From NCBI GenBank assembly GCA_040218145.1, contig JAVJQK010000070.1:124001-188000 (forward strand): DNA of 64,000 bases. The letters run 5' to 3'. This document shows, in pieces, positions 34,668 through 63,101 of the stretch. A program made the translations under genes and the position numbers. This DNA is from Sandaracinaceae bacterium (GTDB taxonomy: Bacteria > Myxococcota_A > Polyangia > Polyangiales > Sandaracinaceae). How positions within the stretch are numbered: position 1 is the first letter of the stretch; every line of letters begins with the position of its first letter. A model generated the notes under the pieces. That model worked only from the letters and a program-made list of their open reading frames with translations, searched no databases and was not told the DNA's origin.

Positions 34668-35855
<1,188 letters not shown>

Positions 35856-35930: not shown

Positions 35931-36458
35931 TCAATCGACCTCGGGTACCATCTTCGAGATGATGTCGTGAATCCGGCGCGTGTCGTAGAAGCGGAGCGCA
36001 CGCGAGCCCAGCTTCACCTCGTCCTTGTGCTGGAGCTCCACCTCCTCTCCAGGGTTCACGAACGCCCCGTTGACCTGGGTGCCGTTGCTCGAGCCCGTGT
36101 CGGAGATGTACACGCCGCCGCGCTTGTCCGTGCGAACCCGCGCGTGCGTCTTCGAGATGCTGTCGTGCGGAATGCAGACGTCGTTCTTGGAGCTCCGACC
36201 GATCGTGATGCCTCGGCCAAAGAGGCTTTGGCGCGTCTGGCGGATCACGAAGGCCTCGTGGCCCCCGAGATCCAGCGGCGCTCGGAGGCTCGGCATGCTG
36301 CCGATCACCGTCGCCACGGTGGTGGACGCATCCTCTGCAGGGCTCGCGTCCGGCGCAGGCCCTGCAAGTAGGTGGCCGCCGACCTCCTCGAAGAACGCCT
36401 CGGGCGTGCATCTCTGGGCGACGGGGATCAGCTCGGCGATTCGCTTCGTGGATGACAT
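35931..36458 (-). CDS. FHA domain protein
   Basis: ATG 36458 gives 175 residues. After an N-terminal helical part and a low-complexity segment, the FHA fold occupies about residues 70-165: F-G-R-G-I-T-I-G-R-S-S-K-N-D-V-C-I, then S-I-S-K-T-H-A-R-V, then D-T-G-S-S-N-G-T-Q-V-N-G, with all key phosphothreonine-binding residues (G-R, S...H, N-G) present. FHA domains bind phosphothreonine peptides. It is probably a cytoplasmic adaptor of Ser/Thr-kinase signalling. It lies 16 bp after the kynurenine monooxygenase-like gene and is the last gene before the terminator. No kinase is in the window. Its presence with an FHA activator two genes away suggests phospho-regulated control of the cluster. Confidence 0.88.
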   Translation of the reverse strand: MSSTKRIAELIPVAQRCTPEAFFEEVGGHLLAGPAPDASPAEDASTTVATVIGSMPSLRAPLDLGGHEAFVIRQTRQSLFGRGITIGRSSKNDVCIPHDSISKTHARVRTDKRGGVYISDTGSSNGTQVNGAFVNPGEEVELQHKDEVKLGSRALRFYDTRRIHDIISKMVPEVD

Positions 36459-47300: not shown

Positions 47301-50300
47301 CCACCCCGAGCTCCGCGACGAGCTTCTCGAACGGGACGTCCTGATGGGCCTGCGCTTCCAAGAGCGTGTCGGTCGTGCTGCGCACCAGCGACTCGAAGTC
47401 GAAGGCCTCACCGACCTTCATCCGCAAGACGAGGGTGTTGACGAAGAAGCCCACCAGCTCCTCGAGCTCGGCCGCCCGCCGGCCCGCGACGGGCGTACCG
47501 ATGACGAAGTCGTCCGTGCGCGAGTAGCGAGCGAGCAGGACAGCCCAGGCCGACAGGAGGACGGTGAACGGCGAGCCACCGAGCTGACGCGCGAGGCGAT
47601 GCACGGCCGCCGACGTGGTGGGAGGCATCGAGAACCGGATCGCGTCCGCCGGGCTCCGCTTGATCGCCGGGCGTGGCCTGTCGAGCGGGAGCTCCAGTAC
47701 GGGGGGCGCGCCGTCCAGTCGCTCCCGCCAGTAGGCGAGCTGCGCGTCCAGCGCGTCTCCAAGCAGCCAGCTGCGCTGCCAAGCGGCGTAGTCGCGATAC
47801 TGGACGGGCAGCACCGGCAGGAGCGGCTCTCGCTCCTCGATCTCCGCGCGGTAGAGCTCCGTGAGATCGCGCGAGACCACGCCGTTCGACCAGCCATCAC
47901 CCGCGATGTGGTGAATCACCAGCACGAAGACGTGCTCGGCGGGCGCGATCTCGATCAGCAGCGCGCGCGCGAGCGGGGCGCGAGCGAGGTCGAACGGTCG
48001 ACGCGCGAAGCCCTCGGCCTGACGCCGCGCGTCCTCCCGCCTCGCCTCGAGGGTCGCGCCCTCTGCGGCCAGCTCCGAGTACGCCGCGCGCACTTCGGAC
48101 TCGACCGATTGCAGCGGCGCTCCTTCGCGCTCGACGAACCGCGTTCGCAGCACCTCGTGCCGTTCGAAGAGCTGGTCCAGGGCTCGGAGGAGGGCACCTC
48201 GGTCGAGCTCACCGACCAGCGTGAACGCCTCGGGGATGTTGTAGGCGGCGCTGTCGGGGTCGAGGCGCTGCAGAAACCACAGGCGCTCTTGCGCGAACGA
48301 AGCCGGGACCACTCCCGCCGTCTCCACGCGGGTGAGCGTGGGCAGCGCGCGCCGCGCGGCCCCCTCGACGACCTTCGCGAGCGCGGAGAGTCGGGGGGAG
48401 GCGAAGACGCTACGGAGCTCGACCTCTACGCCGAACCGCTCTCGGGCGCGCGCGATCATCCGGGTGGCGAGCAGCGAGTGGCCGCCGAGCGCGAAGAAGT
48501 CGTCGTTCCGTCCCACGCGCGCCACGTCGAGGAGCGCCGTCCACACCTCGGCCAGCTCGACCTCGGTGGGGGTCGAGGGGGGCTCGTAGACGGCGCTCTC
48601 CCACTCGGGCTCCGGGAGCGTCTTGCGGTCTACCTTGCCGCTGGGCGTCAGCGGGAGCTCCGTGAGCCTCACCAAGGCGGCCGGCACCATGTACTCGGGG
48701 AGCTCGTTCTCGAGGGCGGCGCGGACCGTCTCGGCCGAGGCGTCGCCCAGCAGGTATCCGACGAGGCGCTGCTCCAGCCCCGAGCCGCGGACCGCGGCCA
48801 CCGCGCGACGAACGCCGGGCACGGACTCCATGGCGACCTCGACCTCGCCGAGCTCGATGCGGAACCCGCGCAGCTTGACCTGATGATCGAGCCGCCCAAG
48901 ATAATCGAGTTGTCCATCCGAGCGCCAGCGGCACAGATCGCCGGTTCGGTACAGGCGGTCGCCGGGCGCGCCCTCGTCGTCGGGGCGGAACCGGTCCGCC
49001 GTCAGGGCAGGCCGCGCGTGATAGCCGCGCGAGACCTGCACGCCGCCGATGCACAGCTCGCCGGGAACGCCGATGGGCTGGGTGAGCTGCGCTCCGCTCA
49101 CCACGCGCAATCGGGTGTTGGCGATCGGCGCGCCGATCGGGACGCGCGCGGAGGGGTCGCCCGGGACGCAGCGCCAATGGCTCACGTCCACCGCGGCCTC
49201 GGTCGGGCCGTAGAGGTTCTCGACCGCGACCTTCGGCGCCAGCGAGTGCGTCCTCTCGACGAGCTCCCGACTCAGCGCCTCACCGCTGCAGACGATGCGA
49301 CGCAGCGACGGCGGCGCCCCACCCTCGTCTTCGAGGTGGAACAGGAACGACTCGAGCATCGACGGCACGAAGTGCGCCGTGGACACCCCCGCCTCGCGGA
49401 AGAGGCGCGCGAGATACACGGGGTCCTTGTGCCCCTCCGGCTCGGCCACGACGAGGGTCGCCCCCGCATGCAGAGGCCAGAACAGCTCCCACACAGAGAC
49501 GTCGAAGCTGTAGGGCGTCTTGTGTACGAGGACGTCGCCCGGGCCGATCGGGAAAGCCTCTTGCATCCAATGCAAGCGATTGACGATCCCCTCGTGGGTG
49601 TTCGTCGCCCCCTTCGGCCGACCGGTCGAGCCCGACGTGTAGATCATGTACGCCGCGTCGCGGGGAAGGCACGAGAGGGGCGCCCGAGCGCCGTCTCCGA
49701 GCTCGTCGACGCGCACACGAGTGAGCTGTCCGTCGGGGAGGCGACCCTCGGTGCTCTCATGGACCAACACCACGGCGGCGCCACAGTCCGACGCCATGTA
49801 GGACAGCCGCTCCGCCGGCAGGGTGGGATCCAGAGGGACGTACGCGCAGCCCGCCGCGACCACGCCGTGGACGGCGACGAGGAGATCGAAGGACCGTTCG
49901 AGGCAGACCCCGACGACCGCTCCCGGCCGGGCTCCGCGAGCGCGGAGCGCCGCCGCGACGCCGTTCACGCGTGCCTCGAACGACGCGAACGTCAGCTCCC
50001 CTTCCACCTCGCTCTTCAGCGCGATGGCGAGCGGCTGGGCGTCCACGCGACGTCGCAGCAACGCAGGCAGGGTGGTCGGGGCGCCGTAGCTCCGCGCGGT
50101 GTCGTTCCACGCGCGGAGCTCCTCCGCCTCGGTCTCCGGAAGCAAGCGAAGCTCCGGCAACGGTCGGTCCGGCGAATCCAGGAGGGTCTCGAGGAACGCG
50201 CCGAACTGCGCCGCGAGCCGACGCATCGACGAGGCCGCGAACAGATCGGCGTCGTAGCTGAGCGCCCCCGTGTAGGAGTCCGGCGTCCGAGCCAGCTGCA

Positions 50301-53300
50301 GCGAGACGTCGAACTTCTCGTAGGCGATCTCGCCGCGCAGCGCGCTCGCCTCACCACCGAAGAGCGATCGCTCGCTCCCGACCGACGAGTCGAGGCTGAA
50401 CATGCTCTGGAAGAGAGGCGTGACGCTCGTGTCGCGACGGGGGCTGAGCTCGCTGACGAGACGCTCGAAGGGGACGTCTTGATTGCCGTAGGCCTCGAGG
50501 AGAGTGGCCCGCGCGCGCTCGAGCGCCTCCTGAAAGCTCGGCGCCCCGCTGAAGTTCGCCCGGAGAACGAGCGTGTTGGCGAAGAACCCGATGAGCGGCT
50601 CCAGCTCCGAGACGCGACGACCCGCGATGGGGCTGCCGACGACCACGTCCTCGGTGCGCGCGTAGCGCGAGAGAAGCACCTGCCACGCCGTGAGGAGCAC
50701 CATGAACGGGGTGACGCCGCGCTCTGACGCGAGCTCCGACACGCGTCTCCCCACCGCGGGAGACAGCGAGAGCCCGACCGAGCCGCCGCGGACGCCCTTC
50801 ACGGTCCGGCGTGGAGAGTCGGTCGGGATGTCGAGCGTCGCGGGCGCGTCGCGTAGATGCCGTCGCCAGTAGGCGAGCTGTCGCTCCATCTCGCCGCCCT
50901 CGAGCCAGGCCCGCTGCCAGACCGCGTAGTCGGCGTACTGTACCGGGAGCGTGGGCATTCCGGCCGCGTCCGCCGAGTAGGCAGCGTCCAGCTCTCGGAG
51001 CAGCACGTCGACCGACCAGCCGTCGGAGATCGCGTGGTGCATCACGCACACGAATGCGCTCTCGTCGGGACTCAGCAGCACGAGGCGCGCCCGCATCAGG
51101 GGCGCCTCCTCGAGATCGAACGGCGCGGCCGCGTCCTGGGCGACCAGCGCGGCGAGCGCCGCTTCACGCGCCTCCGCCCCGACCCCCTCGAGTCGACTGA
51201 CCTCGAGAGGGACGCGGACCCCCTCCAGGATCCGCTGGAACGGCCTCCCGTCGATCTCGACGAGGGACGTGCGGAGCGCCTCGTGTCGTGAGACCACGAT
51301 GTCGATCGCGCGCTGCACCTTTCGCGGATCCGGCGTCCCGCGCAGGCGGAGGGCGACGGGGACGTGATACGCGGCCGAGTCCGGCAGGATGCGGTCCAGC
51401 AGCCAGAGCCGCGCTTGGGCGTGCGACGCGGGCAGGGGGCCCTCGCGCGGCGCGCGCTCGATCGGCGGGAGCGCCGCCGCGCTCGCTTCGTCGATGCGAA
51501 GCGACATCTCGCGCAGGGTCCGCGCCTCGAACGCGACGGTCAGCGAGAGCTCGACGTCGGCGCGCTTTCGCAGCCAGGACACGAGGCGCGTGACGAGGAG
51601 GGAGTTGCCGCCGAGGCGAAAGAAATCGTCGTCGCGCTGGACGGCGTCGACTCCGAGCAGCGACACCCAGGCCTCCGCGAGCATGATCTCCGTCGGCGTG
51701 CCCGGAGCCTCGCCTCCCCGCCGGCTCGGCGACGGCAACCGCGCGTGGTCCACCTTGCCGTTCGGCGTCAGAGGGAGGGCGTCGAGCCGGACGATGTCCG
51801 ATGGCATCATGTAACCGGGCAACACCTCCGACGCGCGCGCGCGCTCCCGATCCAGGTCGAGCGCGCCATCGGCGACGACATAGGCGACGAGGCGGCGCGC
51901 GTCGCCCTCACCTCTGACGACGACGACGGCCTGCTGGACGCGCGGCGAGCTCTCGAGCACGGCCTCGATCTCCGCTGGCTCGATCCGGAAGCCTCGCAGC
52001 TTCACCTGCCGGTCGATGCGTCCCAGGTACGCGAGGGCGCCCGACGTCAACCAGCGTCCCAGGTCCCCGGTGAGATACATGCGGTCACCGGGCTGTCCCG
52101 CGGGATCGGGGACGAAGCGCTCCGCGGTCAGCCTCGGCTGCCGCACGTACCCGCGAGCGAGCTGGGCACCACCGAGCGCGATCTCCCCTGCGTCGCCGAC
52201 GCCCAGGGTCTCGCCCATCGCGGCGACCGTCCGCGCGCGGACGTTCGCGAGCGGACGACCGATGGGCGCCTGTGTGTCGTCGGGCGCGCACACGTGCAGC
52301 GTGGCGCAGACCGTGTTCTCGGTCGGGCCGTAGGCGTTGATGAAGCGCCGCCCGGCTCCGAGCCTGCGGAGCTGGGCGACCGAGCACGCCTCGCCCGCCG
52401 AGACGAGCGTCGCGAGCGATGCGAGCCGGTCGTCCGCGGGCAGCGTCGCCTGAACCGACGGCGGGAACGTGGCGACGGTGACGCCCTGCGAAGCGATGAG
52501 CTCTGCCAGTCGCTCCCCGCTCAACTGCTCGGCACGCTCGGGGAGCACGAGCCGCGCCCCGGCGGCCAGGGTGGGAAAGATCTCCTGCACCGTCGCGTCG
52601 AAGCCGAGGGCGGCGAACTGGAGGAGGCGGCTGTCGGGTCCGAGCCCGAGCTCGTGCGACATCGAGCGCACCAGCGCAACCGCGGTGGCGTGGGTCAGCA
52701 CGACCCCCTTGGGTCGGCCCGTCGTCCCGGACGTGTAGATGACGTAGGCGGCGTTCGAGGGCCGCACGAGCGCAGCGGGAGGGCCGCCTCGCGCCGGCTC
52801 ATCGAGGCCGAGCGTCGACGGGTCGAGGAAACGCCGATCACCGCCTTCGAGATGAGTGAGCACGAGGTCCGCGCCGCAGTCGGCGAGGATGTAGCGCACG
52901 CGCTCGGCGGGGTAGTCAGGGTCGATGGGCACGTAGGCGCCACCCGCCTCGAGGACCGCGAGCGCGCACACGACATAGTCAACGTCCCGCGGAAGGAGGA
53001 TCGCGACGCGGCGCTCTGGACCGACGCCACGCGCGCGGAGGGCGTGCGCGACGCGCCAGACGTCCGCAGCCAGCTCGCGATACCGACGGTGGACGGTCCC
53101 GCGCGCCACCGCGATGGCGTCGGGTGTCCTCGCGACGGCCGCTTCGAACAGTTCGTGGGCGCAGCACGATTCGGGCTGCGCCTCCGTGGGCGTGGACCAC
53201 TCTGCGATGAGCGCGCGCTCTTCGTCGGGCAGGCTCGGAGCCCGATCGGTGGGGACGTCGGGTCGTTCGACGATGCCGCGCACGCAGGCCTCGAACCGCG

Positions 53301-56300
53301 CCGCGACCCGCGCCGCCGTCGCGTCCGTGACGCCGTCGCCGAAGTCCAGCTCCGCCGACCGAGCGCGCTCGTCGATCGACACGGCGAGCCGCGGACCGAG
53401 CGCGCGGACGACGTCGCGGTCGGCTTCGGTCGCCGCCACGACGATGGACCTCGCCCGCTCACCCGTCCGCGAAGCGAGCCAGCGCCACGGGATGGGCCGC
53501 GCGTCTCCGCCGCTCAACGACTCGTCCGCGACGTCGAGCAGCTCGCGTCCCGTCGCTCGGCGAACGTGGCGCGCGCGGACCGGGATCCACGCCCCCGCCC
53601 GAACGACACCGACGACCGCGTCCGTCCCGGTCGCGTGGATCGCAGCGATCCGCAGGGTCGCGGCCAGCGCGAGGCGAGCGTCCACCTCCGGGACCGCGAC
53701 GGGCCGCGGACGCGCGCCGGCGTCCTCCGGCGGGAGGTCCAAGGAGACGCCGAGATCGAGGGCGCGCGCGCGTCCTCGCAGCTCGGCCCTCAGCGCGGGG
53801 CCGCCCAGAAAGCCGAGCGGAGACACGTCCGCGACCGAGTCCGAGGCGGAGGCCGCGACGAGCTGGTCGAGGACGCGCTCGAGCTCTCCGAGCACCTGCT
53901 CGCACGCATCCCCGTCGACGCGCTGCGGGTGGAAGAGCGCCTCGAGCGACAGCGCGGCGCCGAAGTGAGCCGCAATGACGAGAGGGTAGTTGACACGACT
54001 CTCGTTGTGAACGGGCGCCATCTCAGCGGGGCCCGCGTCGCCCGCCCCGGTGGGGTGATTCTCCACGACCAGCAGGCTCTGGAAGATCGGCCCTGCGCCC
54101 ATGCCGCTGCAGCGCTCGGCCTCGACGAGCGGCAGGTGCTCGTGGCGGCGCAGCGCGAGCAGCGAGCTCTGGACGTCTCGGAGCCAATCGCGCACGCGGG
54201 CGGGCGGCGTCACCTCCACGCGCAGCGGCAGCGTGTTGATGAAGAGGCCCATCATGCCTTGTGCGCCGTCCAGGCCGTCGGGCCGCCCGGACATCGTGAC
54301 CCCGAAGATCGGGCGGTCGTCCCCCGAGCGCCAGGAGAGCGTGAGTGACCACGCCGCGGCCAGGAACGTCGCGAGCGTGAGCCCTTCGCGCCGCGCCGCG
54401 GCGTGGAGGCGTCGGGCGAGATCGGGCTGGAGGGCCCGACGGATGCGCCGGTGGTCAGCGCTCGCGGCGGAGACGGGCCTTGTGGGCTCGAGCGACAGCG
54501 GCGTCGGCCGCGTCACGTCCCCGAGCGCCTCCGAGAAGTGGCGACGGGCGGGCGCCGCGTCCTGCCTCGCGAGCCAGCGCACGTAGTCCCCGAACGGCCG
54601 CACGGGCGGAAGATCCAGCGACTGGCCGTCCAGCTCCGCGCGGTACAGCGCGCTCAGCTCGCGCGTGAGAATCCCGCCCGACCAGCCGTCGAGCATCATG
54701 TGGTGGGCCGTCTGGATCAGGCGAGCGTCCCCGTCGCCCAGCAGCGCGATCGTGAACCGCGAGACGGGGGCGCGCTCGAGGCGGAGCGGCTCCGCGTGCT
54801 CGGCCGCGCGGAGCTGTTCGAAGCGCGCCTCCGGATCGGCCTCGTCGCGCAGGTCCACGCACGGCAGCTCCACGGGGACGGCGGTTCGCACGAGCTGAAC
54901 TGGAGCCTCGAGGCCCTCCCAGTGGAACTCGGTGCGCAACGCGGCGTGTCGGTCGTGAAGGTGTTGCAGCGCGCGACACAGGGCCTCGGCGTCCACCCTC
55001 CCTCGAATCGCGTGCACGAATTGCTCACGGTAGAGCGGAGAGGCGTCGGCCTCGGCCGCCATGCGGCTGTGAAACAGCATGCCCTCCTGGAGCGGCGTCA
55101 GGGGGAGCACATCCTCGATCTCGCCGCCGGGCCGCAGGCTCTCGAGCGTCGCGTCGTCCAGCTCGACCAGTGGAAAATCCAACGGGCGGGCGCGTCGCCC
55201 CTGCGCGACCTCGAGCTCCCGGGCGACAGCGCGGAGGGCGTCGACGATGGCGCCGGCGAGCGCCTCGACTCGCCCGGCGCGCAGGACGCGAGCCGGATAG
55301 TCGATGACCCACTCCAGGCCTGCGTCGGTCAGGTACGCGACGACGAGCAACATGGCCGGCCGAACGTTGTCGCCAGCCACGGGGAGCCCGAAGGGGTTGA
55401 GCGAAGCGCGACCGAAGCCGGGCCGTACGATGTCCGTCGCGCGGCCCAGAAAGTTGAAAGCGATCTGCGGCCTGGGGTACGGCGCGTCATCCGCTCTCTC
55501 TGCGAGATGGCGATTCAGCCCATACCCGACGCCCCCGTTCGGAACGCGACGCAGCTGGGCACGAACATCCGTGAGCCAGAGCGCCGGATCGTCCTCCTCC
55601 GGCAGCTCGAGGCGAACGGGATGGGCGACCGTGAGCCACCCGACCGTCCGGCTCGTCTCGACCCCCTCCAGCTCGACGTCTCGACCGTGTCCCTCCAGCT
55701 CGAGCCGGACCGCCGAGCGCCCGGACCAGCGGCGGTAGCCGATCGCGAGCGCCGCGATCAGCGCCTCCTCGATCGTGACGAGGCCGCTGGCGTCGACCGC
55801 CTCGGTCAGGCGACGTGAGTCCTCCGCCGGAAAGACGACCTCCACGGAGCGCGCGTCGCGGAAGCGCCCCTCCTCCGGCTCGGCGTCCTCGTCTGCCGAC
55901 CCGGTCTCGTCCACCGGCACCGCGGGTACGGCGCCCCGGCTCATCAGGTCCCAGTGAGGAGCCTCGGCCCGGATGTCTGGCCGGCTGGCGAGCTCGCCGA
56001 GCGCCGCCGCGACCTGCGCAAAGGACGAGGTCCGCGGGAGCGCGGCGCGTCGCGCTTCCACGCTCGCCGTGACGGCCGCCTCGAGATCTTCGACGAGCAC
56101 GCGCCACGAGAAGGCGTCGATCACCAGGTGGTGCGCCGCGAGCCAGAGCACGCCTCGGTGCGCATCGAAGAGCGCGCCGAAGACCGGGCCCACGTCGATC
56201 GACAGGCTCGCCTCGAGCTGCTCCGCGAGGGACCGCTCGTCCACCTCCGACCGCACGACGCGGAGCCGCGCGAGCGACGGCTCGAACGGCTCGACGGTCT

Positions 56301-59300
56301 GTCGGACGACTCCGTCGGCGTCCTCGACATAGCGCGCGCGGAGCATCTCGTGGTGCTCCACGAGCGTCTCGAGCGATTCGCGGAGGGTCGACTCGTCGAC
56401 GCGCCGTTCGAGCTGCATGCGCAGGAGCTGCTGAAAGCGGCTCGGCCGAGGGTTCTCGAGCTCGAAGAACCACCGCTGGATCGGCGTCAGGGGGACGTCC
56501 CCCGTCGCACCGGCGTAGGCCAGCCCGACGACGCCCTCGTCACCCTCCGAAGCCCGGCTGGCGAGCGCCCTGACCACCGGCGCCTCGAAGATGTCTTGCA
56601 CCGACACCCGGAGGCCCGCGCGTTTGATCCGCCACACCACCTGCATGGCGATGATGGAGTCGCCGCCGAGCGCGAAGAAGTCGTCCTCGGGGCCCACCTC
56701 GGTCAGCCCGAGCGCCTCGGCGAAGGCGGTGGCCACCCGAGCCTCGCGTGGATCGGACGGTCGCTCGGCCCGCGCGGCGCGCACCGGCGCCTTTGGCGTG
56801 GGGAGGCTCTTCTTGTCGACTTTGCCGAACTGGGTCCGGGGCAGCACGTCCATCGAGACGTGCTGATTCGGGATCATGTGCGCGGGGAGCTGCTCCGCCA
56901 GGTGCGCGCGGAGGTCGCTCCACTCGAGGGCCCCGTTGGGGACCACGTAGACCACCAGCTGCTTCACGCCGCGACCGTCGGGCGCGATGTGGGCAGCGGC
57001 CTCGTGGACCCCTTCGTGGCGGTGACAGGCGTCCTCGATCTCACCCAGCTCGACGCGGCGTCCGCGCAACTTGACCTGCTGATCGTCACGCCCTACGAAC
57101 TCGAGTTGCTCATCGCCGCGCCAGCGGACGAGATCTCCGGTCCGGTACATGCGGCCACCCGGGTCGGCGGCGTGCGGGTCGGGGACGAATTTCTCGGCGG
57201 TCCTGGCGGGAGCGCCGACGTAGCCACGAGACACCCCCGCGCCGCCGAGGACGAGCTCCCCGACGACGCCGAAGGGGGCGACCTCGAGCGCGTCGTCGAG
57301 CACGTAGGATCTCCCGCCGTCGACCGAACGTCCGACCGGGATCGTCTCGTCCGCGCGGTCCGGGTCCACGACCGCGTGGAGCGCCGTGATCGAGCACTCG
57401 GTCGGGCCGTATTGATTGAACAGCGTGAAGGGCGCGCGGTGAAACCCCTCCCAGCGCATCTGCTCCCCGCCGACCGACAGGAGTCGTGTGGCCTCGAAGC
57501 ACTCTGGACGCTGCTCGAGCATCTGGCGAAGCAACGCAGGGATGACGTGGGCCGACGTGATCCCTTCGGACCTGAACCACTCGGCGAGGCGGGACGCGTC
57601 GGCGCGCACGTCGTCGTCGGCGATGTGAAGGGTCGCCCCCGACGCGAGGACCTCCCAGGTCTCCACCACGGCCGCGTCGAAGCTCGTGTCGACGAGGTGC
57701 GACCCATGGTCGCCGGGACCGAGCCCGCTGACCCTCAGCCTCCACTCGATGGTGTTGGCGAAGCCGCCATGTCGGACCGCGACCCCCTTGGGACGACCGG
57801 TCGAGCCCGAGGTGAAAATAACGTAAGCAACATTGTCGACGGAGAGCTCGACGCTCGGGCGCTTCGGCTGGCCCCCTGCCTCCAGCTCGCCGAAGCGTAG
57901 GACGGTCGCTGCGAGGTCGGTCGCGCGCGGCTCGTCCGTGACGATGATGCGCGCGTCCGCGTCCGCGAGCATCGACGCGACGCGCTCGGATGGCTGGCCG
58001 CCGTCGATGGGGAGATAGGACGCGCCCGCTCGCATGATGCCGAGCGCGGTGACGACCATGTCGACCCGACGGTCGGACCAGATGGCCACGCACGACTCGA
58101 GGGAGACGCCCCGATCGCGCAGCCCCGCGGCCACCGCGGCCGAGCGTCGCTCGAGCTCCGCGTAAGAAACGACCTCGTCGCCGTGCCGGAGGGCGACCGC
58201 GTCGGGCCTCGACGCGGCGTGGGCGCAGACGAGGTCGGGAACCAAGCTCGGAGTGGGCGACGGCGCCGCGCCGACGCCGAGGTCGACCAGCGCGCGCGCG
58301 TCGGACGACGACATCGGGCCCACGAGACCGAGCGGGGTGTCCGGCCCAGCCACCAGCTGTTCGATCACCGTCATCCAGCCGCGGGGCACCCTCTGGGCGA
58401 TGGCGTCGGGGACGCGGCCGCGGTCGTACTGGAGGACGAAGGCGAGCGCCTCTCCATCGCGCAGCGCCATGAGTCCGAGCGGGAAGCCAGGGCTTCGGAA
58501 AGACTTCTTCCGCTCCACGACGAGGTCCCGCCCGAAGTCCGAGCCGTCCTTCACGAACGGCACGCTCTGGTGCAGCACCGTGCTCTCGTAGAGGGGCTCA
58601 CCGGGCGGGACCGCGCTCTGACGGCGAATGTCGGGCAGCGACGCGTACTGGTGCTCTCGAACGGCGAGCACCTCGTCGTGCACCCGACGCAGCCAGTCGA
58701 CGACGCCGATCCGATCGGGCACGCGGATCCGGAGCGGAGGCGTCCCCACGAACATGCCGACCATCTCATTGGCGCCCGACAGACCTTCCGGACGTCCGGA
58801 CATGGTCGCTCCGACGACCACGTCGCGCTGCCCCGCGTATCGCGCCATGAGCAGCGCCCAGCCTCCGACGGTGACCGCCGCTTCGCTGACTCGCTCGGCG
58901 CGACAGAACTCGGCGATCCGGCGCGCGAGGGGCTCCGGCACGTCTTCGTGGAGCTCAGCGAAACGCGGCTCACCGTCCGGGACGCTGCGAGTGACGTCGA
59001 CGCCCAGGGGGGTCGGCCCGCTCACGTCCCGCAGCCGCTCGCGCCAGAACGCGAGGTCGCGCTCGGGGTCGCGAGCCTTCAGCCACGCGATGTACTTCGA
59101 GTAGGGCTGTGGTGCCGCCAGCGACGCTGGAGCCGCGCCACCCGCGTCGTACGTGGCGATGGCTTCATGGAGCAGCTGGGTGTAGCCCCAGCCGTCCAGC
59201 ATGGTGTGATGGAAGCCGACGACCAGCCACCACGCGTCCCGGTCGACACGCAGCAAGGAGAAGTCGATGGGCGGCGGCCTGCGCGGGTCGATGCCCTCGA

Positions 59301-59640
59301 GGCGCCGCTCGCGAAGGAACGCGTCGACGCGCCGCTCGCGGTCGTCGGGGGACAGCGCGAGCAGATCGATCTCGGCCCAGGGGAGCTCGACATCGCGCAG
59401 GACGATCTGCAGCGGAGAGTCGACCTTCTCCCACTTGAGCGCCGAACGCAGGACCTCGTGCCGAGCGACGACCGCCTCGAAGGCCGACCGCAGTCGCCCC
59501 GCGTCCAGCGGCCCGCGGAGCAAGTACGCGTACTGCTCCAGGTGACGCGGCTCCCCGCCCGCCCTGAGGCTCTCGAAGAGCAGCCCCGCCTGACTGGGGC
59601 TGGCGGGATAGACATCTACGACTCGAGATCGGTCGATCAC
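41323..59640 (-). CDS. Five-module nonribosomal peptide synthetase with terminal thioesterase
   Basis: GTG 59640 lies 4 bp after the starter-protein stop; 6,105 residues. Module 1: C (HH 144-145...DG), A1 (about 467-945), PCP (Ser995), epimerase (about 1045-1480). Module 2: C (HH about 1648), condensation-domain remnant (about 1945-2140), A2 (2163-2630), PCP (Ser2680). Module 3: C, A3 (3188-3670), PCP (Ser3722). Module 4: C, A4 (4232-4710), PCP (Ser4761). Module 5: C, A5 (5263-5747), PCP (Ser5794), then thioesterase with Ser5920 in A-H-S-A-G and His near 6071. Specificity residues aligned by eye to GrsA: A1 DAVHSGQIT (unknown), A2 DAQTVAAVC (Phe-like, aromatic), A3 DVWHVSLVD (Ser), A4 DAWFLGHVV (Leu-like), A5 DVTTVGSVA (unknown; its A4 region reads A-D-V-G-N-T). 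With the starter this predicts a hexapeptide with a D residue at position 2, released by the thioesterase as an acid or ring. No MbtH-like protein or phosphopantetheinyl transferase is in the window. Confidence 0.95.
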   Translation of the reverse strand: MIDRSRVVDVYPASPSQAGLLFESLRAGGEPRHLEQYAYLLRGPLDAGRLRSAFEAVVARHEVLRSALKWEKVDSPLQIVLRDVELPWAEIDLLALSPDDRERRVDAFLRERRLEGIDPRRPPPIDFSLLRVDRDAWWLVVGFHHTMLDGWGYTQLLHEAIATYDAGGAAPASLAAPQPYSKYIAWLKARDPERDLAFWRERLRDVSGPTPLGVDVTRSVPDGEPRFAELHEDVPEPLARRIAEFCRAERVSEAAVTVGGWALLMARYAGQRDVVVGATMSGRPEGLSGANEMVGMFVGTPPLRIRVPDRIGVVDWLRRVHDEVLAVREHQYASLPDIRRQSAVPPGEPLYESTVLHQSVPFVKDGSDFGRDLVVERKKSFRSPGFPLGLMALRDGEALAFVLQYDRGRVPDAIAQRVPRGWMTVIEQLVAGPDTPLGLVGPMSSSDARALVDLGVGAAPSPTPSLVPDLVCAHAASRPDAVALRHGDEVVSYAELERRSAAVAAGLRDRGVSLESCVAIWSDRRVDMVVTALGIMRAGASYLPIDGGQPSERVASMLADADARIIVTDEPRATDLAATVLRFGELEAGGQPKRPSVELSVDNVAYVIFTSGSTGRPKGVAVRHGGFANTIEWRLRVSGLGPGDHGSHLVDTSFDAAVVETWEVLASGATLHIADDDVRADASRLAEWFRSEGITSAHVIPALLRQMLEQRPECFEATRLLSVGGEQMRWEGFHRAPFTLFNQYGPTECSITALHAVVDPDRADETIPVGRSVDGGRSYVLDDALEVAPFGVVGELVLGGAGVSRGYVGAPARTAEKFVPDPHAADPGGRMYRTGDLVRWRGDEQLEFVGRDDQQVKLRGRRVELGEIEDACHRHEGVHEAAAHIAPDGRGVKQLVVYVVPNGALEWSDLRAHLAEQLPAHMIPNQHVSMDVLPRTQFGKVDKKSLPTPKAPVRAARAERPSDPREARVATAFAEALGLTEVGPEDDFFALGGDSIIAMQVVWRIKRAGLRVSVQDIFEAPVVRALASRASEGDEGVVGLAYAGATGDVPLTPIQRWFFELENPRPSRFQQLLRMQLERRVDESTLRESLETLVEHHEMLRARYVEDADGVVRQTVEPFEPSLARLRVVRSEVDERSLAEQLEASLSIDVGPVFGALFDAHRGVLWLAAHHLVIDAFSWRVLVEDLEAAVTASVEARRAALPRTSSFAQVAAALGELASRPDIRAEAPHWDLMSRGAVPAVPVDETGSADEDAEPEEGRFRDARSVEVVFPAEDSRRLTEAVDASGLVTIEEALIAALAIGYRRWSGRSAVRLELEGHGRDVELEGVETSRTVGWLTVAHPVRLELPEEDDPALWLTDVRAQLRRVPNGGVGYGLNRHLAERADDAPYPRPQIAFNFLGRATDIVRPGFGRASLNPFGLPVAGDNVRPAMLLVVAYLTDAGLEWVIDYPARVLRAGRVEALAGAIVDALRAVARELEVAQGRRARPLDFPLVELDDATLESLRPGGEIEDVLPLTPLQEGMLFHSRMAAEADASPLYREQFVHAIRGRVDAEALCRALQHLHDRHAALRTEFHWEGLEAPVQLVRTAVPVELPCVDLRDEADPEARFEQLRAAEHAEPLRLERAPVSRFTIALLGDGDARLIQTAHHMMLDGWSGGILTRELSALYRAELDGQSLDLPPVRPFGDYVRWLARQDAAPARRHFSEALGDVTRPTPLSLEPTRPVSAASADHRRIRRALQPDLARRLHAAARREGLTLATFLAAAWSLTLSWRSGDDRPIFGVTMSGRPDGLDGAQGMMGLFINTLPLRVEVTPPARVRDWLRDVQSSLLALRRHEHLPLVEAERCSGMGAGPIFQSLLVVENHPTGAGDAGPAEMAPVHNESRVNYPLVIAAHFGAALSLEALFHPQRVDGDACEQVLGELERVLDQLVAASASDSVADVSPLGFLGGPALRAELRGRARALDLGVSLDLPPEDAGARPRPVAVPEVDARLALAATLRIAAIHATGTDAVVGVVRAGAWIPVRARHVRRATGRELLDVADESLSGGDARPIPWRWLASRTGERARSIVVAATEADRDVVRALGPRLAVSIDERARSAELDFGDGVTDATAARVAARFEACVRGIVERPDVPTDRAPSLPDEERALIAEWSTPTEAQPESCCAHELFEAAVARTPDAIAVARGTVHRRYRELAADVWRVAHALRARGVGPERRVAILLPRDVDYVVCALAVLEAGGAYVPIDPDYPAERVRYILADCGADLVLTHLEGGDRRFLDPSTLGLDEPARGGPPAALVRPSNAAYVIYTSGTTGRPKGVVLTHATAVALVRSMSHELGLGPDSRLLQFAALGFDATVQEIFPTLAAGARLVLPERAEQLSGERLAELIASQGVTVATFPPSVQATLPADDRLASLATLVSAGEACSVAQLRRLGAGRRFINAYGPTENTVCATLHVCAPDDTQAPIGRPLANVRARTVAAMGETLGVGDAGEIALGGAQLARGYVRQPRLTAERFVPDPAGQPGDRMYLTGDLGRWLTSGALAYLGRIDRQVKLRGFRIEPAEIEAVLESSPRVQQAVVVVRGEGDARRLVAYVVADGALDLDRERARASEVLPGYMMPSDIVRLDALPLTPNGKVDHARLPSPSRRGGEAPGTPTEIMLAEAWVSLLGVDAVQRDDDFFRLGGNSLLVTRLVSWLRKRADVELSLTVAFEARTLREMSLRIDEASAAALPPIERAPREGPLPASHAQARLWLLDRILPDSAAYHVPVALRLRGTPDPRKVQRAIDIVVSRHEALRTSLVEIDGRPFQRILEGVRVPLEVSRLEGVGAEAREAALAALVAQDAAAPFDLEEAPLMRARLVLLSPDESAFVCVMHHAISDGWSVDVLLRELDAAYSADAAGMPTLPVQYADYAVWQRAWLEGGEMERQLAYWRRHLRDAPATLDIPTDSPRRTVKGVRGGSVGLSLSPAVGRRVSELASERGVTPFMVLLTAWQVLLSRYARTEDVVVGSPIAGRRVSELEPLIGFFANTLVLRANFSGAPSFQEALERARATLLEAYGNQDVPFERLVSELSPRRDTSVTPLFQSMFSLDSSVGSERSLFGGEASALRGEIAYEKFDVSLQLARTPDSYTGALSYDADLFAASSMRRLAAQFGAFLETLLDSPDRPLPELRLLPETEAEELRAWNDTARSYGAPTTLPALLRRRVDAQPLAIALKSEVEGELTFASFEARVNGVAAALRARGARPGAVVGVCLERSFDLLVAVHGVVAAGCAYVPLDPTLPAERLSYMASDCGAAVVLVHESTEGRLPDGQLTRVRVDELGDGARAPLSCLPRDAAYMIYTSGSTGRPKGATNTHEGIVNRLHWMQEAFPIGPGDVLVHKTPYSFDVSVWELFWPLHAGATLVVAEPEGHKDPVYLARLFREAGVSTAHFVPSMLESFLFHLEDEGGAPPSLRRIVCSGEALSRELVERTHSLAPKVAVENLYGPTEAAVDVSHWRCVPGDPSARVPIGAPIANTRLRVVSGAQLTQPIGVPGELCIGGVQVSRGYHARPALTADRFRPDDEGAPGDRLYRTGDLCRWRSDGQLDYLGRLDHQVKLRGFRIELGEVEVAMESVPGVRRAVAAVRGSGLEQRLVGYLLGDASAETVRAALENELPEYMVPAALVRLTELPLTPSGKVDRKTLPEPEWESAVYEPPSTPTEVELAEVWTALLDVARVGRNDDFFALGGHSLLATRMIARARERFGVEVELRSVFASPRLSALAKVVEGAARRALPTLTRVETAGVVPASFAQERLWFLQRLDPDSAAYNIPEAFTLVGELDRGALLRALDQLFERHEVLRTRFVEREGAPLQSVESEVRAAYSELAAEGATLEARREDARRQAEGFARRPFDLARAPLARALLIEIAPAEHVFVLVIHHIAGDGWSNGVVSRDLTELYRAEIEEREPLLPVLPVQYRDYAAWQRSWLLGDALDAQLAYWRERLDGAPPVLELPLDRPRPAIKRSPADAIRFSMPPTTSAAVHRLARQLGGSPFTVLLSAWAVLLARYSRTDDFVIGTPVAGRRAAELEELVGFFVNTLVLRMKVGEAFDFESLVRSTTDTLLEAQAHQDVPFEKLVAELGVEREASTPPLFQVMFSLHRDEGRTGELLGVVAERLEVAPAEAKFDLSLMLVQKGDSLIGRLEYDAALFEPQTAQRHVTHFLRVLDRVLEAPREELARRSFLDEAEHARLTTSWANGPELPCDPRTVPALVEARAGESPDAVALVSGDVRTTYRALIDRVDRVAGGLASRGVGPGRRVAVCLPPGQDFVCAALAVMRSGAAYVSIDPSYPDDRIAYMVEDSDAALVVADPPARARLTAVAAPIVELDALSAAAGSPRRPTARDEAYVIYTSGTTGRPKGVAVAHEQLSSLCAWHRDVYPVGPGVTVTQLAGVGFDASVWEIWPALAAGATVSIVLGDARRDPSALADHLAEAGVEIAFMATPLAEAMLSSEASTPPRLKTLLTGGDRLHRVDVSALPFELVNHYGPTENTVVSTYGLVRTGVEPTLGRPLPGTSALVLDGALEPTLEGVPGELCVGGRQVARGYVGRPSLTADRFRPDPFGDPGERIYRTGDLVRWTQDAELAFLGRIDRQVKLRGQRVELGEIESVLESEPRVRAAVVEVRRNARGVERLVAYVVAENGDLGGLERLAAERLPGHMVPNQFVSLSALPLTPNGKIDRAALPEPAWAATADGEAPRTESERWLAALWQDLLGIDVDLKREDDFFALGGHSLVATRVASRVREELGVELSLRSVFEGPTLAAMASRIDEAQRRDLPPITPRDASSREVPTSFAQERLWFLQQLRPESASYNIPLVLRLRGRLALTPLSRALNAIVERHEILRTRIVSRDGAPVQVVDPPSPLALALERVDGESSARRRVGAIVGRPFDLAAESPIRAHLLEGPQEERWLVIVLHHVAGDGWSSGVVLSELAALYRAELEGREAEVAPLEIQYADYALWQRRWLVGDELDRQLSYWRAQLAGAPPSLELPIDHPRPHLKGERGGVVRLRATGSAARRARELAREGGATSFMVLLAAWQLLLARYARTDDVCVGTPIAGRRVAELEPLVGFFVNTLVLRGRVRPELTFRQLIAQVRETTLDAYAHQDVPFERLVAALAPSRDTRHTPLFQVMFSLQSGAPATPGMPGLDAQLVSPDEVTCKFDLSLTLVDDGSALAGMLAFDASLFEPQSVEGMARRFEDLLDRVMSDPDRPLGQVPLLARDQTAPRHAAPPPIDARPVDALIGRWALDTPDALALCAGDETLSYAELWRGAGAVAGALRERGVGHEDRVALLATRTIDTVVAMVGVMRAGAAYVALDPEHPQERLAHQLTDSGAVLLLGGAHELDALTLSAPIPTATFADCRDGSQDLDLRRHATGLLYVTYTSGSTGTPKGVAVEHAGMRRYLTGLGSKLALAPGKSHAVLTTLSADVGNTAVYGALTSGGVLHLLTPEVAKSPRRLASYLERRSVDFLKTVPPHMEALLSTAEGVLPREAVVLGGETFPWSLANSIGDRCEAFNSYGPSETTVAVAMERVSRPGGASVPIGAPIGGARLLVVDPLTDEVPSGVPGELWIAGPSVSRGYLGRPRLTAERFVPDPSGVSPGARAYRTGDHVRSLPDGRLEFLGRADGQVKIRGYRVELGEVEAQVRAIRGVRSAVVLARRDDERGLHLVAYVVGSATDDRRLAADLGARLPEHMIPSAWVHLDSLPLTENGKIDRRALPAPSWDTGPTEPPVTATEVALARIWSRILGVSSVGRHADFFALGGHSLLAVKLVAELEDGLARRVDLLDVFERRTVARMAELLDADAGSRADSTRVVTLSRGPAPTVFALHSLAGTVGHFVELADRLEGRATMLGLAHSRMSDEGSLETLAQRYAAVVRARSEGDAVHLLAHSAGSFFALAAARVLSAEGCDVRLFLLDPPPLTGPVGALTDEIVRLKWARELLAMASGERPDALADGASRETVFAALASAGIGSTDSERALLERQLDAYAAALRLSREGSSTAAPGVRAMTLFASEGNGLGGTDAAAAGWRLALPTLEVATLEASHFGMLRGPDAGRVVESIERWLEASRETRKDGR

Positions 59641-59644
59641 GGCG

Positions 59645-61492
59645 TCACTCGTCGTCGAATAGCGCGTCGAGACCTGCCTCGTCCAAGCCGTCCACGAGCG
59701 AGAACCGTTCCGGCGCCTCCTGGCTGGACGCGGGCTCGGCCGGGCTCGCGGCGTCCACGGATTGCGCGAGCTCGCGGATCTCGAGCTCGAACACCTTGCG
59801 GAAGTCGAGCGCCAACCCGGCCTGCTCCGCCTTCCACATGAGGTTCATCACCCGAACCGAGTCGCCTCCGAGGCCGATGAAGTCGTCGTCGGGGCCGACG
59901 GCGGACACGCCCAGGACCTCGGCGTAGAGCGCGCAGAGCAGCTGCTCGGTCGAGCTCGCGGGCGGCGCCGACGCGCGCTCGGGGGCTCGCTCTTGGCGCG
60001 GCGCGGGCAACCTCGCGACGTCGAGCTTGCCGGAGCTCTTTCGCGGGAGCTCCTCGAGCAAGACGATGTGCGTCGGTACCATATGTGCCGGGAGCACGTG
60101 CTCGAGCGCCGCGCGGAGCTTCGTCACGTCGATCTGGGCGGGAACGACATACGCGGCGAGCTGCTTCGAGTCGGGCTCTCCGACCGCCCTGACGGCAGCC
60201 TCCTCGACGTCGGCGACGGCCTCCAAGGCGGCCCGCACCTCGCCCAGCTCCACCCGGTGGCCGCGGATCTTGACCTGCTCGTCGGAGCGCCCCTCGAACA
60301 CGAGCTGACCATCGGCCAGCCTGCGCGCGAGGTCTCCGCTTCGATAGCCACGCAGCCCCACGGACGCGTCATCGGGGTCGGGTCGGAACCGGTCGGCCGT
60401 GAGCCCCGGTCTCCCCGCGTATCCGCGCGCCACGCCCTCTCCCGCGAGGAACATCTCGCCCGTCGGCTCCGAGGGCGCCAGGGCGTCGTCGACCAGCTGG
60501 ACCCGCATCCCGGAGACGGGGCGCCCCAGCGGAGGCATGCCGCTCCCCTCTGGATCGACGGGCGCGGCGAGCACGGTGACCGCACACTCGGTCGGACCGT
60601 AGGCGTTGAACAGGTCGAAGGGGACATCGCGGAAGCCATCCCACCGCATCGCCTCCCCCCCGCACACGAAGGTCTGCACCCCTGCGAGCCGGCCGGGGTC
60701 ACGCTCCACCAGCGGGCGAAGCAGCGCCGGGGTGACGTACGCGACCAGCACGCGCTCGGTCGCGATCCACTCGCCCAGCGCTCTGGGGTCCTGCTTGAGA
60801 GCTTCGTCGAACAGGACGAGCGTGGCGCCGGCGAGGAGGGGCTCCCAGAGCGCCTGGACCGAGGCGTCGAAGCTCCAACCGAGGAGGTTGGCGCAGCGCG
60901 ACTCCGGGGTGACCGAGAAGTACCTTCGGCTCCACTCCAGCGTGTTGAGGAGGCTGCGGTGCGCGACCCCGACGCCCTTGGGATGCCCCGTCGAGCCCGA
61001 GGTGTACACCTGGTAGGCGAGCTGCATGGGGGAGGCGACGCGGGGGAGAGGCGTCGACGCGACGGCGGCGCCCCCGAGGTGCCCCGTCGGGAGAACGGGG
61101 GTCGCTCCCCAGCTGCCGACCGGGACGCGACGCTCGTCGTCCGTGACGCAAAAGCGCGCGCCGGCGTCCGCCTGGATCCACCGAACGCGCTCGGGCGGCT
61201 GGCGCAGGTCGAGCGGCACGTAGACCCCGCCCGCCCGGACGATCCCGAGCATGGCGACGACGAACTCGAGGGGCGACTCGAGCCAGATGGTGACCCGCTC
61301 CTCCCGCCGCAGCCCGTGCTGAATCAGCGCGGACGCCAGCGCCTCGGACGCCCGATCCAGCTCACCGTACGAGAGGCTACGGTCGCCGTGCTTCAGCGCC
61401 TGCTTGGCTCGATCTCTCGCGGCGACCGCCGAGAACGCACGATCCAGCGTCTGCCCGATCGTGCTTCGGATCGGTTCGCTCACTTTCGACAT
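59645..61492 (-). CDS. NRPS starter protein: adenylation and carrier domains
   Basis: ATG 61492, with GGGAG six bases upstream, gives 615 residues: an A domain (about 20-520, with Y-T-S-G-S-T-G-H-P-K-G, Y-G-P-T-E-C, Y-R-S-G-D-L and a final G-K-L) and a carrier domain (F-I-G-L-G-G-D-S, about 560). There is no condensation domain, so it starts the chain. Specificity residues by eye are DAQYVGAVT; Asp at position 235 implies an alpha-amino acid, identity unknown. The segment G-G-E-A-M-R-W-D-G-F is shared, with small changes, with A1 of the large synthetase, suggesting duplication of a common ancestor. The acidic end (G-L-D-E-A-G-L-D-A-L-F-D-D-E) looks like a docking segment for the condensation domain at the start of the next protein, 4 bp downstream. 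Confidence 0.93.
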   Translation of the reverse strand: MSKVSEPIRSTIGQTLDRAFSAVAARDRAKQALKHGDRSLSYGELDRASEALASALIQHGLRREERVTIWLESPLEFVVAMLGIVRAGGVYVPLDLRQPPERVRWIQADAGARFCVTDDERRVPVGSWGATPVLPTGHLGGAAVASTPLPRVASPMQLAYQVYTSGSTGHPKGVGVAHRSLLNTLEWSRRYFSVTPESRCANLLGWSFDASVQALWEPLLAGATLVLFDEALKQDPRALGEWIATERVLVAYVTPALLRPLVERDPGRLAGVQTFVCGGEAMRWDGFRDVPFDLFNAYGPTECAVTVLAAPVDPEGSGMPPLGRPVSGMRVQLVDDALAPSEPTGEMFLAGEGVARGYAGRPGLTADRFRPDPDDASVGLRGYRSGDLARRLADGQLVFEGRSDEQVKIRGHRVELGEVRAALEAVADVEEAAVRAVGEPDSKQLAAYVVPAQIDVTKLRAALEHVLPAHMVPTHIVLLEELPRKSSGKLDVARLPAPRQERAPERASAPPASSTEQLLCALYAEVLGVSAVGPDDDFIGLGGDSVRVMNLMWKAEQAGLALDFRKVFELEIRELAQSVDAASPAEPASSQEAPERFSLVDGLDEAGLDALFDDE

Positions 61493-61505: not shown

Positions 61506-63101
61506 TCACTCGGCCGGGTAGTCCGCCATCCGGGGCGGCATCGTCTCGAGCTTCGGCGGCTCCTGCATGACCATCTGGCTCTGGAAGAACTCGAAGAGCG
61601 GCCGCACGTGCAGCTCCTCGTCCTCCCACTCTCCGAAGAGGTTCTCGAGGAGATGGATGCGCCGGACCGCCTTGCCACGCGAGTAGCGCCTCACGACAGG
61701 GTGCAGGAAGAAGCTCTGATCGGCCGTCTCCGGGTCAGGGTCACGCGGCACGTTGAAGGGGTCGTCGTGACAGTGCCCGAACTCGAGGCTGATCGTGTAG
61801 TAGTGCTTGCTTCGCCCGATGTCCGACTCGTGGACGTAGTGGAACGGGAGCTCCTCGTAGTACCGGGCTTCGCCGTCTTCTCCCAGCACGATCGCGTCGC
61901 AGAGGAAGCCGAACTGCTGCCACAGCGCGGACGACTTGCGAATCCTTCGGAGCGCCGCGCGGGTGAACTCCACCGCGTCTGGTCGGACGACCTCGTACGG
62001 TAGCGGTCGACCCTCGACCTTGTTGCGCAGGATGTGGAAGAGGGTCTTGGCGTTGTACCGGAAGCCGTGAATGAAGGCCGAGTTGGTCTTCTTGTAGTCA
62101 CGAGACTGGGTGATCACGCCCGCGTAGAACAGATTCGGGACGTTGACCGACTCCCACTCGCTGGTCATCTCGGGGAAGCGATCCGCATGGACGCGCGCCG
62201 GCCTGCATCCCTCGGCGAAGATGGACGGGTCGAACTTGAACCCGGTGCAGACGATCACCCGATCGTACTCGATGTCCTCCACCTCTCCGAGCGCGTGCTC
62301 GTAGCTGAAGGACACGCGGAGCGTCCCGGACTCGGTCTTCTCGATCTTGCGCACCTGCGCGTCGAGGACCGCGTTCTGGGTCTTCAACTGGTAGGTGTCC
62401 AGGAAATTGTTGTTGACAGCCCGCAGGTGCCCGGGGAAGTGCGTCTTCCAGGCGAACTTCACGGGGGTCGGGCTGGCGACGTGGAGGAGCGAGGTGGTCG
62501 GGATGAGCGCGTCAGCCGTCTCGAAGCCGGAGTTCCCCTTGCCGAGCACGAGCACGCGCTGACCGACGAAGTCCTGGGGGTCGACGCTCACGTCGACGTA
62601 GTTCTCGCTGTGCTCGATGCCCGTGATGCGGGGGACATACGGACGACTCACGCCGGTCGCGAGGATCACCGCGCGAGCGTGGTACTTCTGCCCGTTCTTC
62701 GCTTCGACGGTGAACGTCCCGTCGTCGTTCCGCGACGTGCTGACCACCTCGGTGTTCACGTCGATGTTGGGAACGAAACGCCGCTGGAACTCCTCGAGGT
62801 ACTCGACAAGTGCGTCGGCGCTGGGGAAGTACTCCTCGGTGTAGTGCTTGAGGAGGAGCGAGTGGTCGTCGGTGAGGAGCGAGTTCCAGTCGAACCGAAG
62901 GTTGCGCTCGGGATCCGAGTATCCGGTGTGGACCTTGTTGACGGAGATCAGCTTGCGATGCCGAGGGTACTTGCGGAAGAAGTCACCCGCGGTAGGGCCC
63001 TTCTCGAGGACTCGGTAGCTGACGCCGGCTCGCTGCAAGTAGTAGCCCAGCTGAAGACCCGCCGGACCGGCACCGATGACCAGGTAGTCCACTTCATTCA
63101 T
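61506..63101 (-). CDS. FOXRED2-like FAD-dependent oxidoreductase
   Basis: ATG 63101 is chosen because AGAGGAAG lies eight bases upstream; a GTG at 63110 would sit on the ribosome binding site. The 531 residues start with FAD motif V-I-G-A-G-P-A-G-L-Q-L-G-Y, then the striking Y-P-R-H-R-K-L-I-S-V-N-K and L-R-F-D-W-N-S-L-L, which resemble eukaryotic FOXRED2/ERFAD. A second nucleotide site, V-L-G-K-G-N-S-G-F-E-T-A-D-A, follows near residue 190, then A-T-G and C-T-G-F blocks of flavin monooxygenases. It is soluble, without a signal peptide or ER signal. It is the first gene of the NRPS transcript, 13 bp before the starter protein, so it probably oxidises a precursor or the peptide; FOXRED2 chemistry itself is poorly defined. 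Confidence 0.85.
   Translation of the reverse strand: MNEVDYLVIGAGPAGLQLGYYLQRAGVSYRVLEKGPTAGDFFRKYPRHRKLISVNKVHTGYSDPERNLRFDWNSLLTDDHSLLLKHYTEEYFPSADALVEYLEEFQRRFVPNIDVNTEVVSTSRNDDGTFTVEAKNGQKYHARAVILATGVSRPYVPRITGIEHSENYVDVSVDPQDFVGQRVLVLGKGNSGFETADALIPTTSLLHVASPTPVKFAWKTHFPGHLRAVNNNFLDTYQLKTQNAVLDAQVRKIEKTESGTLRVSFSYEHALGEVEDIEYDRVIVCTGFKFDPSIFAEGCRPARVHADRFPEMTSEWESVNVPNLFYAGVITQSRDYKKTNSAFIHGFRYNAKTLFHILRNKVEGRPLPYEVVRPDAVEFTRAALRRIRKSSALWQQFGFLCDAIVLGEDGEARYYEELPFHYVHESDIGRSKHYYTISLEFGHCHDDPFNVPRDPDPETADQSFFLHPVVRRYSRGKAVRRIHLLENLFGEWEDEELHVRPLFEFFQSQMVMQEPPKLETMPPRMADYPAE

What the first reader, a model, noticed from the sequence alone, without database searches (positions are those of the whole stretch)
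61506..63101. Bacterial FOXRED2-like flavoprotein heading a biosynthetic operon
The blocks Y-P-R-H-R-K-L-I-S and L-R-F-D-W-N-S-L-L strongly recall FOXRED2/ERFAD, a eukaryotic ER protein of unclear chemistry. A soluble bacterial form as first gene of an NRPS operon could define a tailoring reaction and hint at the ancestral function.
Basis: partly seen in the sequence, partly recalled or inferred. Interest (0 to 1): 0.6.

Follow-up and report, generated by a model that had tools for sequence, protein, structure and literature searches.

The report
Bacterial cousin of human FOXRED2 flavoprotein
A bacterium that makes a peptide natural product starts the gene cluster with an enzyme that looks like a soluble version of human FOXRED2, a protein whose chemistry is unknown; rare relatives in other bacteria mostly sit beside genes that activate acids or amino acids, so bacterial pathways may offer a way to find out what this enzyme family does.

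Summary
It starts a tight five-gene operon: ERFAD-like flavoprotein, stand-alone A-T loading didomain, five-module NRPS with a thioesterase, sulfotransferase, and a VioD-like flavin hydroxylase. Its core is an FAD/NAD(P)H oxidoreductase fold closest to small flavin monooxygenases and YpdA. Its C-terminal domain has no Pfam hit and no clear PDB match. It lacks the disulfide-reductase CxxC, the Baeyer-Villiger/FMO fingerprint and the halogenase WxWxI.

Full-length relatives (42-56% identity) are rare (under 1-2% of sampled genomes) but span six phyla. Most sit in NRPS clusters or in an actinobacterial acyl-ligase/FMN-dehydrogenase/P450 cassette. A human FOXRED2 sequence that I recalled from memory aligns end to end (37%; 43% to the best bacterial member), keeps 82 of 98 family-conserved positions (unrelated FMOs keep 27-35 of 97), and nests inside the bacterial tree. 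That recalled sequence is a lead, not a database record. A sponge relative, OroF, was published in 2026 as a pyrrole brominase.

Best explanation: an ERFAD-like NADPH/FAD oxygenase tailoring a carrier-bound or peptide-bound residue, either hydroxylating or halogenating it. The substrate is unknown.

The parts
61506..63101 (-). ERFAD/FOXRED2-like FAD/NAD(P)H flavoprotein, 531 aa (residues 1-~363 two-dinucleotide-binding core; ~364-515 C-terminal domain without Pfam hit)
63057..63080 (-). FAD-binding motif VIGAGPAG (residues 8-15)
   Evidence: alignment; invariant G10, G12, G15
62508..62561 (-). NAD(P)H-binding motif RVLVLGKGNSGFETADAL (residues 181-198)
62382..62450 (-). family-specific, largely near-invariant loop WKTHFPGHLRAVNNNFLDTYQLK (residues 218-240), mostly low model confidence, proposed active-site lid
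   Evidence: role inferred
59645..61492 (-). stand-alone A-T (adenylation-carrier) loading didomain, code DAQYVGAVTK
41323..59640 (-). NRPS of 6105 aa: C-A-T-E, C-A-T, C-A-T, C-A-T, C-A-T-TE (codes DAVHSGQITK, DAQTVAAVCK, DVWHVSLVDK, DAWFLGHVVK, DVTKVGSVAK)
   Evidence: E domain from the extra Condensation-family match and its motif
40664..41365 (-). Sulfotransferase (PF17784), overlaps the NRPS end
39585..40667 (-). FAD_binding_3 aromatic hydroxylase, VioD/salicylyl-CoA 5-hydroxylase-like; overlaps the sulfotransferase gene by 4 bases
36475..37833 (-). VioC-like FAD_binding_3 monooxygenase, possibly the same pathway, separated by a sigma-54/FHA regulator gene
   Evidence: membership in the pathway inferred

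Best explanation
The gene encodes a cytosolic ERFAD-like flavoprotein: an FAD enzyme reduced by NAD(P)H, with the two-dinucleotide-binding core of small class-B-type monooxygenases plus a family-specific C-terminal domain. It most likely forms a flavin-(hydro)peroxide and uses it to oxygenate one residue of the nonribosomal peptide, or to halogenate it as sponge OroF does. The preferred candidate is the starter amino acid loaded by the adjacent A-T didomain; the sulfotransferase and VioD-like hydroxylase would then decorate the product further. Shown here: gene, operon layout, cofactor motifs, core fold prediction, absence of redox CxxC, family and recurrent biosynthetic context. Inferred: oxygen activation, the substrate, its carrier-bound state, and whether oxygen or halogen is installed.
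For: FAD and NAD(P)H motifs are invariant or nearly so. The predicted core matches flavin monooxygenase SMFMO 4a9w (Z 25.4, 2.7 A, 309 residues), tied with YpdA 7a76 (Z 25.0), then 3d1c (23.2). No member has a CxxC. All bacterial members form one family apart from FMO/BVMO/ArsO outgroups. Seven of ten loci of the window's branch sit beside NRPS genes, in four lineages: window; Aliikangiella L006; Saprospiraceae L007, L008, L012; Kordia L009, L036. Actinobacterial and Granulicella members sit with an AMP-forming ligase, FMN_dh, P450 and a CPA2 antiporter in varying completeness, often with two paralogues per cluster. OroF, reported as 43% identical to human ERFAD, brominates pyrrole carboxamides with FAD, NADPH and KBr (PMC12833800).
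Against: No activity data exist for any bacterial member. The fold match to monooxygenases is tied with disulfide-reductase folds, so fold alone does not show oxygen activation. The FxGxxxHxxxW fingerprint of class B oxygenases is absent. Adjacent A-domain codes share no substrate across clusters. Three cyanobacterial relatives have no NRPS within the sampled stretch. OroF did not act on the CoA thioester, so action on a carrier thioester is uncertain; action after amide formation is equally possible.
Confidence: 0.55

Rival explanations
1. It is a halogenase like OroF: NADPH-reduced FAD makes a peroxyflavin that oxidises bromide or chloride, and the hypohalite halogenates an aromatic side chain of the peptide. 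(This is a sub-case of the best explanation, stated apart because it is testable apart.)
For: The only ERFAD-like enzyme with a published biosynthetic reaction, OroF, is a pyrrole dibrominase without known halide motifs. WxWxI is absent here as well. Relatives occur in genera I know to be marine (Kordia, Aliikangiella). The nearby VioC/VioD-like hydroxylases hint at an aromatic, perhaps indole, substrate.
Against: The paper itself derives the halogenase from a duplication inside oroidin-producing sponges, so bromination may be a local novelty. No halide-site residues are known to test. Several other carriers are actinobacteria, where bromide chemistry is less expected.
Confidence: 0.22
2. It is a dehydrogenase or reductase (electron transfer to or from the residue, or to a partner such as the FMN_dh or P450 next door), not an oxygenase.
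For: The core fold fits YpdA (Z 25.0) and ferredoxin-NADP reductases as well as monooxygenases. Human ERFAD reduces a prodrug (PMC5751730). A P450 is adjacent in actinobacterial clusters.
Against: No redox cysteines. No P450 neighbour was seen in the NRPS clusters. The reported OroF reaction needs oxygen-type chemistry.
Confidence: 0.17
3. It is an N-hydroxylating or Baeyer-Villiger monooxygenase whose FOXRED2 similarity is superficial.
For: Pfam Lys_Orn_oxgnase, 34.9 bits over residues 89-200 only, and FMO-like at 17.1 bits.
Against: FMO/BVMO-type outgroups keep 27-35 of 97 family-conserved positions against 81 for recalled FOXRED2. The tree separates them. The fingerprint FxGxxxHxxxW is absent.
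Confidence: 0.06

Closest known systems
FOXRED2/ERFAD (human ER flavoprotein; physiological reaction unknown)
   Same: Same length-wise architecture: FAD/NAD(P)H core without redox cysteines plus a shared C-terminal domain. Recalled sequence 37% identical to the window protein over 562 columns and 43% to the Nonomuraea member; 82 of 98 family-conserved positions kept (sequence from memory).
   Different: The bacterial protein begins at the FAD motif, with no room for an ER signal peptide, and has no KEEL-type tail (translation); it lies in a peptide biosynthesis operon rather than in ER-associated degradation.
OroF, sponge ERFAD-like pyrrole brominase (PMC12833800)
   Same: ERFAD-like family, FAD/NADPH, no known halogenase motifs, part of a biosynthetic gene bundle that also holds ligation enzymes.
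   Different: Animal protein with an ER signal peptide. Whether the bacterial enzyme halogenates is unknown.
Small flavin monooxygenases such as SMFMO (PDB 4a9w)
   Same: Best structural match of the core, Z 25.4 over 309 residues.
   Different: About 22% identity, about 350 aa, so too short to hold the C-terminal domain.
YpdA/Bdr bacillithiol disulfide reductase (PDB 7a76)
   Same: Core fold Z 25.0.
   Different: About 325 aa, lacks the C-terminal domain; identity about 23%.
Baeyer-Villiger monooxygenases, ornithine N-hydroxylases, Trp-type flavin halogenases
   Same: Same broad flavoprotein superfamily.
   Different: BVMO and halogenase fingerprints are absent, and the FMO/BVMO-type outgroups tested fall outside the family.

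Membership tests
ERFAD/FOXRED2-like family | FAD-binding GxGxxG and NAD(P)H-binding motif in one core | tested here: met
   GAGPAG 10-15 and GKGNSGFE 187-194, invariant or nearly so
ERFAD/FOXRED2-like family | No cysteines at the disulfide-reductase active site (stated for ERFAD in PMC5751730) | tested here: met
   No CxxC in the window protein or any relative; paper passage
ERFAD/FOXRED2-like family | Full-length homology to FOXRED2 including the C-terminal domain | tested here: inconclusive
   Strong (37%, E 2e-112; 22 of 26 C-domain positions kept) but against a sequence recalled from memory; no ERFAD is in the PDB set
ERFAD/FOXRED2-like family | Groups with FOXRED2 rather than with FMO/BVMO/ArsO | tested here: inconclusive
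   Tree supports it (family split 0.885, core 0.995), with the recalled sequence as the only animal row and six outgroups
Animal ERFAD proper | ER signal peptide and KEEL/KDEL retention tail | tested here: not met
   FAD motif starts at residue 8; C-terminus is ...RMADYPAE; so it is not an ER protein
OroF-type brominase | FAD/NADPH-dependent bromination of an aromatic substrate | not testable with these tools
   Needs enzyme assay
Baeyer-Villiger/class B FMO | Fingerprint FxGxxxHxxxW | tested here: not met
   Absent from all members; present in two own-genome FMO controls
Trp-type flavin-dependent halogenase | WxWxI motif | tested here: not met
   W.W.I absent; motif definition in PMC12871659
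Thioredoxin/disulfide reductase | Redox-active CxxC | tested here: not met
NRPS operon tailoring enzyme | Co-directional, tightly spaced with NRPS genes, recurrent in other genomes | tested here: met
   13-base and 4-base gaps; NRPS beside 7 of 10 loci of this branch; a tailoring activity itself is not tested

The most novel reading that the evidence does not exclude
Bacterial ERFAD-like enzymes are an unrecognised class of single-component flavin halogenases or oxygenases of assembly-line peptides, and animal FOXRED2/ERFAD descends from such biosynthetic enzymes. The unknown ER reaction would then be oxidation or halogenation of a small molecule or side chain, not disulfide reduction.
Probability: 0.25. 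Interest if true: 0.8.

Novelty: new variant of a known kind. Interest (0 to 1): 0.55.

Why it matters
FOXRED2/ERFAD has no assigned physiological reaction; the JACS paper says no enzymatic reaction has been characterised for ERFAD. A soluble bacterial relative tied to a predictable six-residue peptide gives a direct genetic test: delete the gene and look at what the peptide loses. The family may also be a source of new oxygenases or halogenases. I found no paper that describes bacterial ERFAD-like proteins in biosynthetic clusters, but only open-access papers were searched.

Tried and rejected
Reading the gene on the plus strand: a stop lies inside. Ornithine hydroxylase or Baeyer-Villiger kinship: rejected by motif, conserved-position count and tree. 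A first tree with two own-genome FMOs in the wrong frame was discarded and redone. Contamination of the recalled FOXRED2 by the window sequence: where the window departs from the family majority, the recalled sequence agrees with the majority 43 times and with the window 8 times, so it is not a copy of the window. Substrate from A-domain codes: no code is shared across clusters, and the A-T code DAQYVGAVTK was not found in the paper searched. I first took the fused N-terminal part of L037/L038 for a ligase; its sequence reads as an MFS transporter (by eye). C-terminal domain fold: no Foldseek match with E below 0.2 and best Z 4.6, which leaves the fold open rather than proving it new. Viral collection: only one distant contig. 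A database copy of human FOXRED2 or OroF could not be reached.

Full report
Observation. The ORF is at the stated coordinates but on the minus strand; the plus strand is broken there. ATG 63101 has a GAGGAAG element upstream. The 531-aa product scores 164 bits with Pfam Pyr_redox_3 over residues 7-328; the last 200 residues have no Pfam match.

Operon. On the minus strand follow, at 13 bases, an A-T didomain (59645-61492) and, at 4 bases, a 6105-aa NRPS (41323-59640). The NRPS has five A domains, five carrier motifs, one epimerisation-type Condensation match and a terminal thioesterase. A PF17784 sulfotransferase overlaps the end of the NRPS, and a VioD/salicylyl-CoA-hydroxylase-like FAD_binding_3 protein overlaps the sulfotransferase by 4 bases; a VioC-like protein lies beyond a sigma-54/FHA regulator. 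Upstream, a co-directional gene without a Pfam match, next to a Pkinase-PEGA gene, ends 99 bases before the ATG. An A-T module without a C domain is the usual form of a loading module, so the predicted product is a hexapeptide (inference). Codes read by PheA numbering (a reference segment from memory) are DAQYVGAVTK for the loading module, then DAVHSGQITK, DAQTVAAVCK, DVWHVSLVDK (Ser-like), DAWFLGHVVK (Leu-like) and DVTKVGSVAK (Asx-like); the amino-acid names are my reading and not tested.

Family. One 100% match exists in the own genome, plus weak partial FMO matches. They are rare: 3 of 282 in the own phylum, 7 of 396 in that of Labedaea, 1 of 345 (Kordia), 3 of 292 (Leptolyngbya), 1 of 349 (Aliikangiella) and 1 of 277 (Granulicella). 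These counts include the seed genome (in the own phylum, the window's genome), and one of the seven is a divergent 36% member. Several genomes carry two or three copies.

Context. Six other loci of the window's branch have NRPS genes near the flavoprotein: L006 (with an MFS gene between), L007, L008, L009, L012 and L036 (the last with a CmlA-type hydroxylase and a PPTase). The three cyanobacterial loci do not; they share a conserved 245-aa neighbour, and the one scanned has no Pfam match. Actinobacterial and Granulicella members share a cassette of AMP-forming ligase, FMN_dh, P450 and CPA2 antiporter with two-component regulators, in varying completeness; L039-L041 hold two flavoprotein paralogues within one cluster. 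In L037 and L038 an MFS-like segment is fused to the N-terminus. A PF17784 sulfotransferase also recurs in L015 and, by similarity, L037.

FOXRED2. No database FOXRED2 was reachable, and none has a solved structure in the set searched. I therefore compared a human sequence recalled from memory, as a lead. It aligns with the window protein at 37% over 562 columns and at 43% with the Nonomuraea member. It keeps 82 of 98 conserved positions, 22 of 26 in the C-terminal domain, whereas ArsO-, FMO- and BVMO-like proteins keep 27-35 of 97. In the tree it falls inside the bacterial family (family split 0.885; core bacterial group 0.995), and the exact branching around it is weakly supported. It is not a copy of the window sequence.

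Mechanism. The predicted core (pLDDT 83, pTM 0.86) matches SMFMO 4a9w at Z 25.4 and YpdA at 25.0, so the fold does not decide between oxygenase and reductase. No member has CxxC, FxGxxxHxxxW or WxWxI. A nearly invariant stretch, AWxTHxxGHLRAxNNxxLDTYQLK (217-240), is mostly low-confidence in the model (pLDDT below 50 for 222-241), which fits a mobile lid (inference). The C-terminal domain folds confidently alone (pLDDT 87) but has no clear PDB match. The published relative OroF uses FAD and NADPH with bromide on pyrrole carboxamides, and not on pyrrolyl-CoA; ERFAD lacks active-site cysteines and reduces a prodrug. Together these favour a flavin-peroxide tailoring enzyme. Whether oxygen or halogen is transferred, and whether the substrate is carrier-bound or a released or elongated peptide, is not settled.

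Verdict. A bacterial ERFAD-like protein in an NRPS operon is real and belongs to a rare family found mostly beside natural-product genes. It is a new variant of a known kind, useful because it makes the open question of ERFAD chemistry testable.

Noticed in passing
L037:9440-11539 and L038:8770-11700: ERFAD-like protein fused in frame behind an MFS-like transporter segment in two closely related actinobacterial genomes; a separate MFS gene also precedes the gene in L006.
   Followed up: partly
L039, L040, L041 (about 5.7-15.7 kb of each locus): Two ERFAD-like paralogues in one cluster, one next to an AMP-forming ligase, the other next to FMN_dh, P450 and a CPA2 antiporter.
   Followed up: partly
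L005:673-1416, L044:10506-11234, L045:10835-11548: Conserved ~245-aa neighbour of cyanobacterial ERFAD-like genes with an HDDHHW-type motif in L005 and no Pfam match at 1e-5; could be a haem-oxygenase-like diiron protein (guess).
   Followed up: no
window 33808-34452 (+) and 40664-41365 (-): Two related sulfotransferase-cluster genes about 6 kb apart; the family recurs near ERFAD-like genes in L015 and L037.
   Followed up: partly
window 31315-33555 (-) and 34668-35855 (+): Di-haem peroxidase-like genes (DHOR and CCP_MauG) close together.
   Followed up: no
L043:9094-10596 and L063:5001-6377: Divergent relatives at 31-36% identity, L063 from a contig in the viral collection; possible sister subfamily.
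   Followed up: no
window 37841-39511 and 35931-36458 (-): Sigma-54 activator with FHA domain, and an FHA protein, on either side of the VioC-like gene; possible cluster regulators.
   Followed up: no
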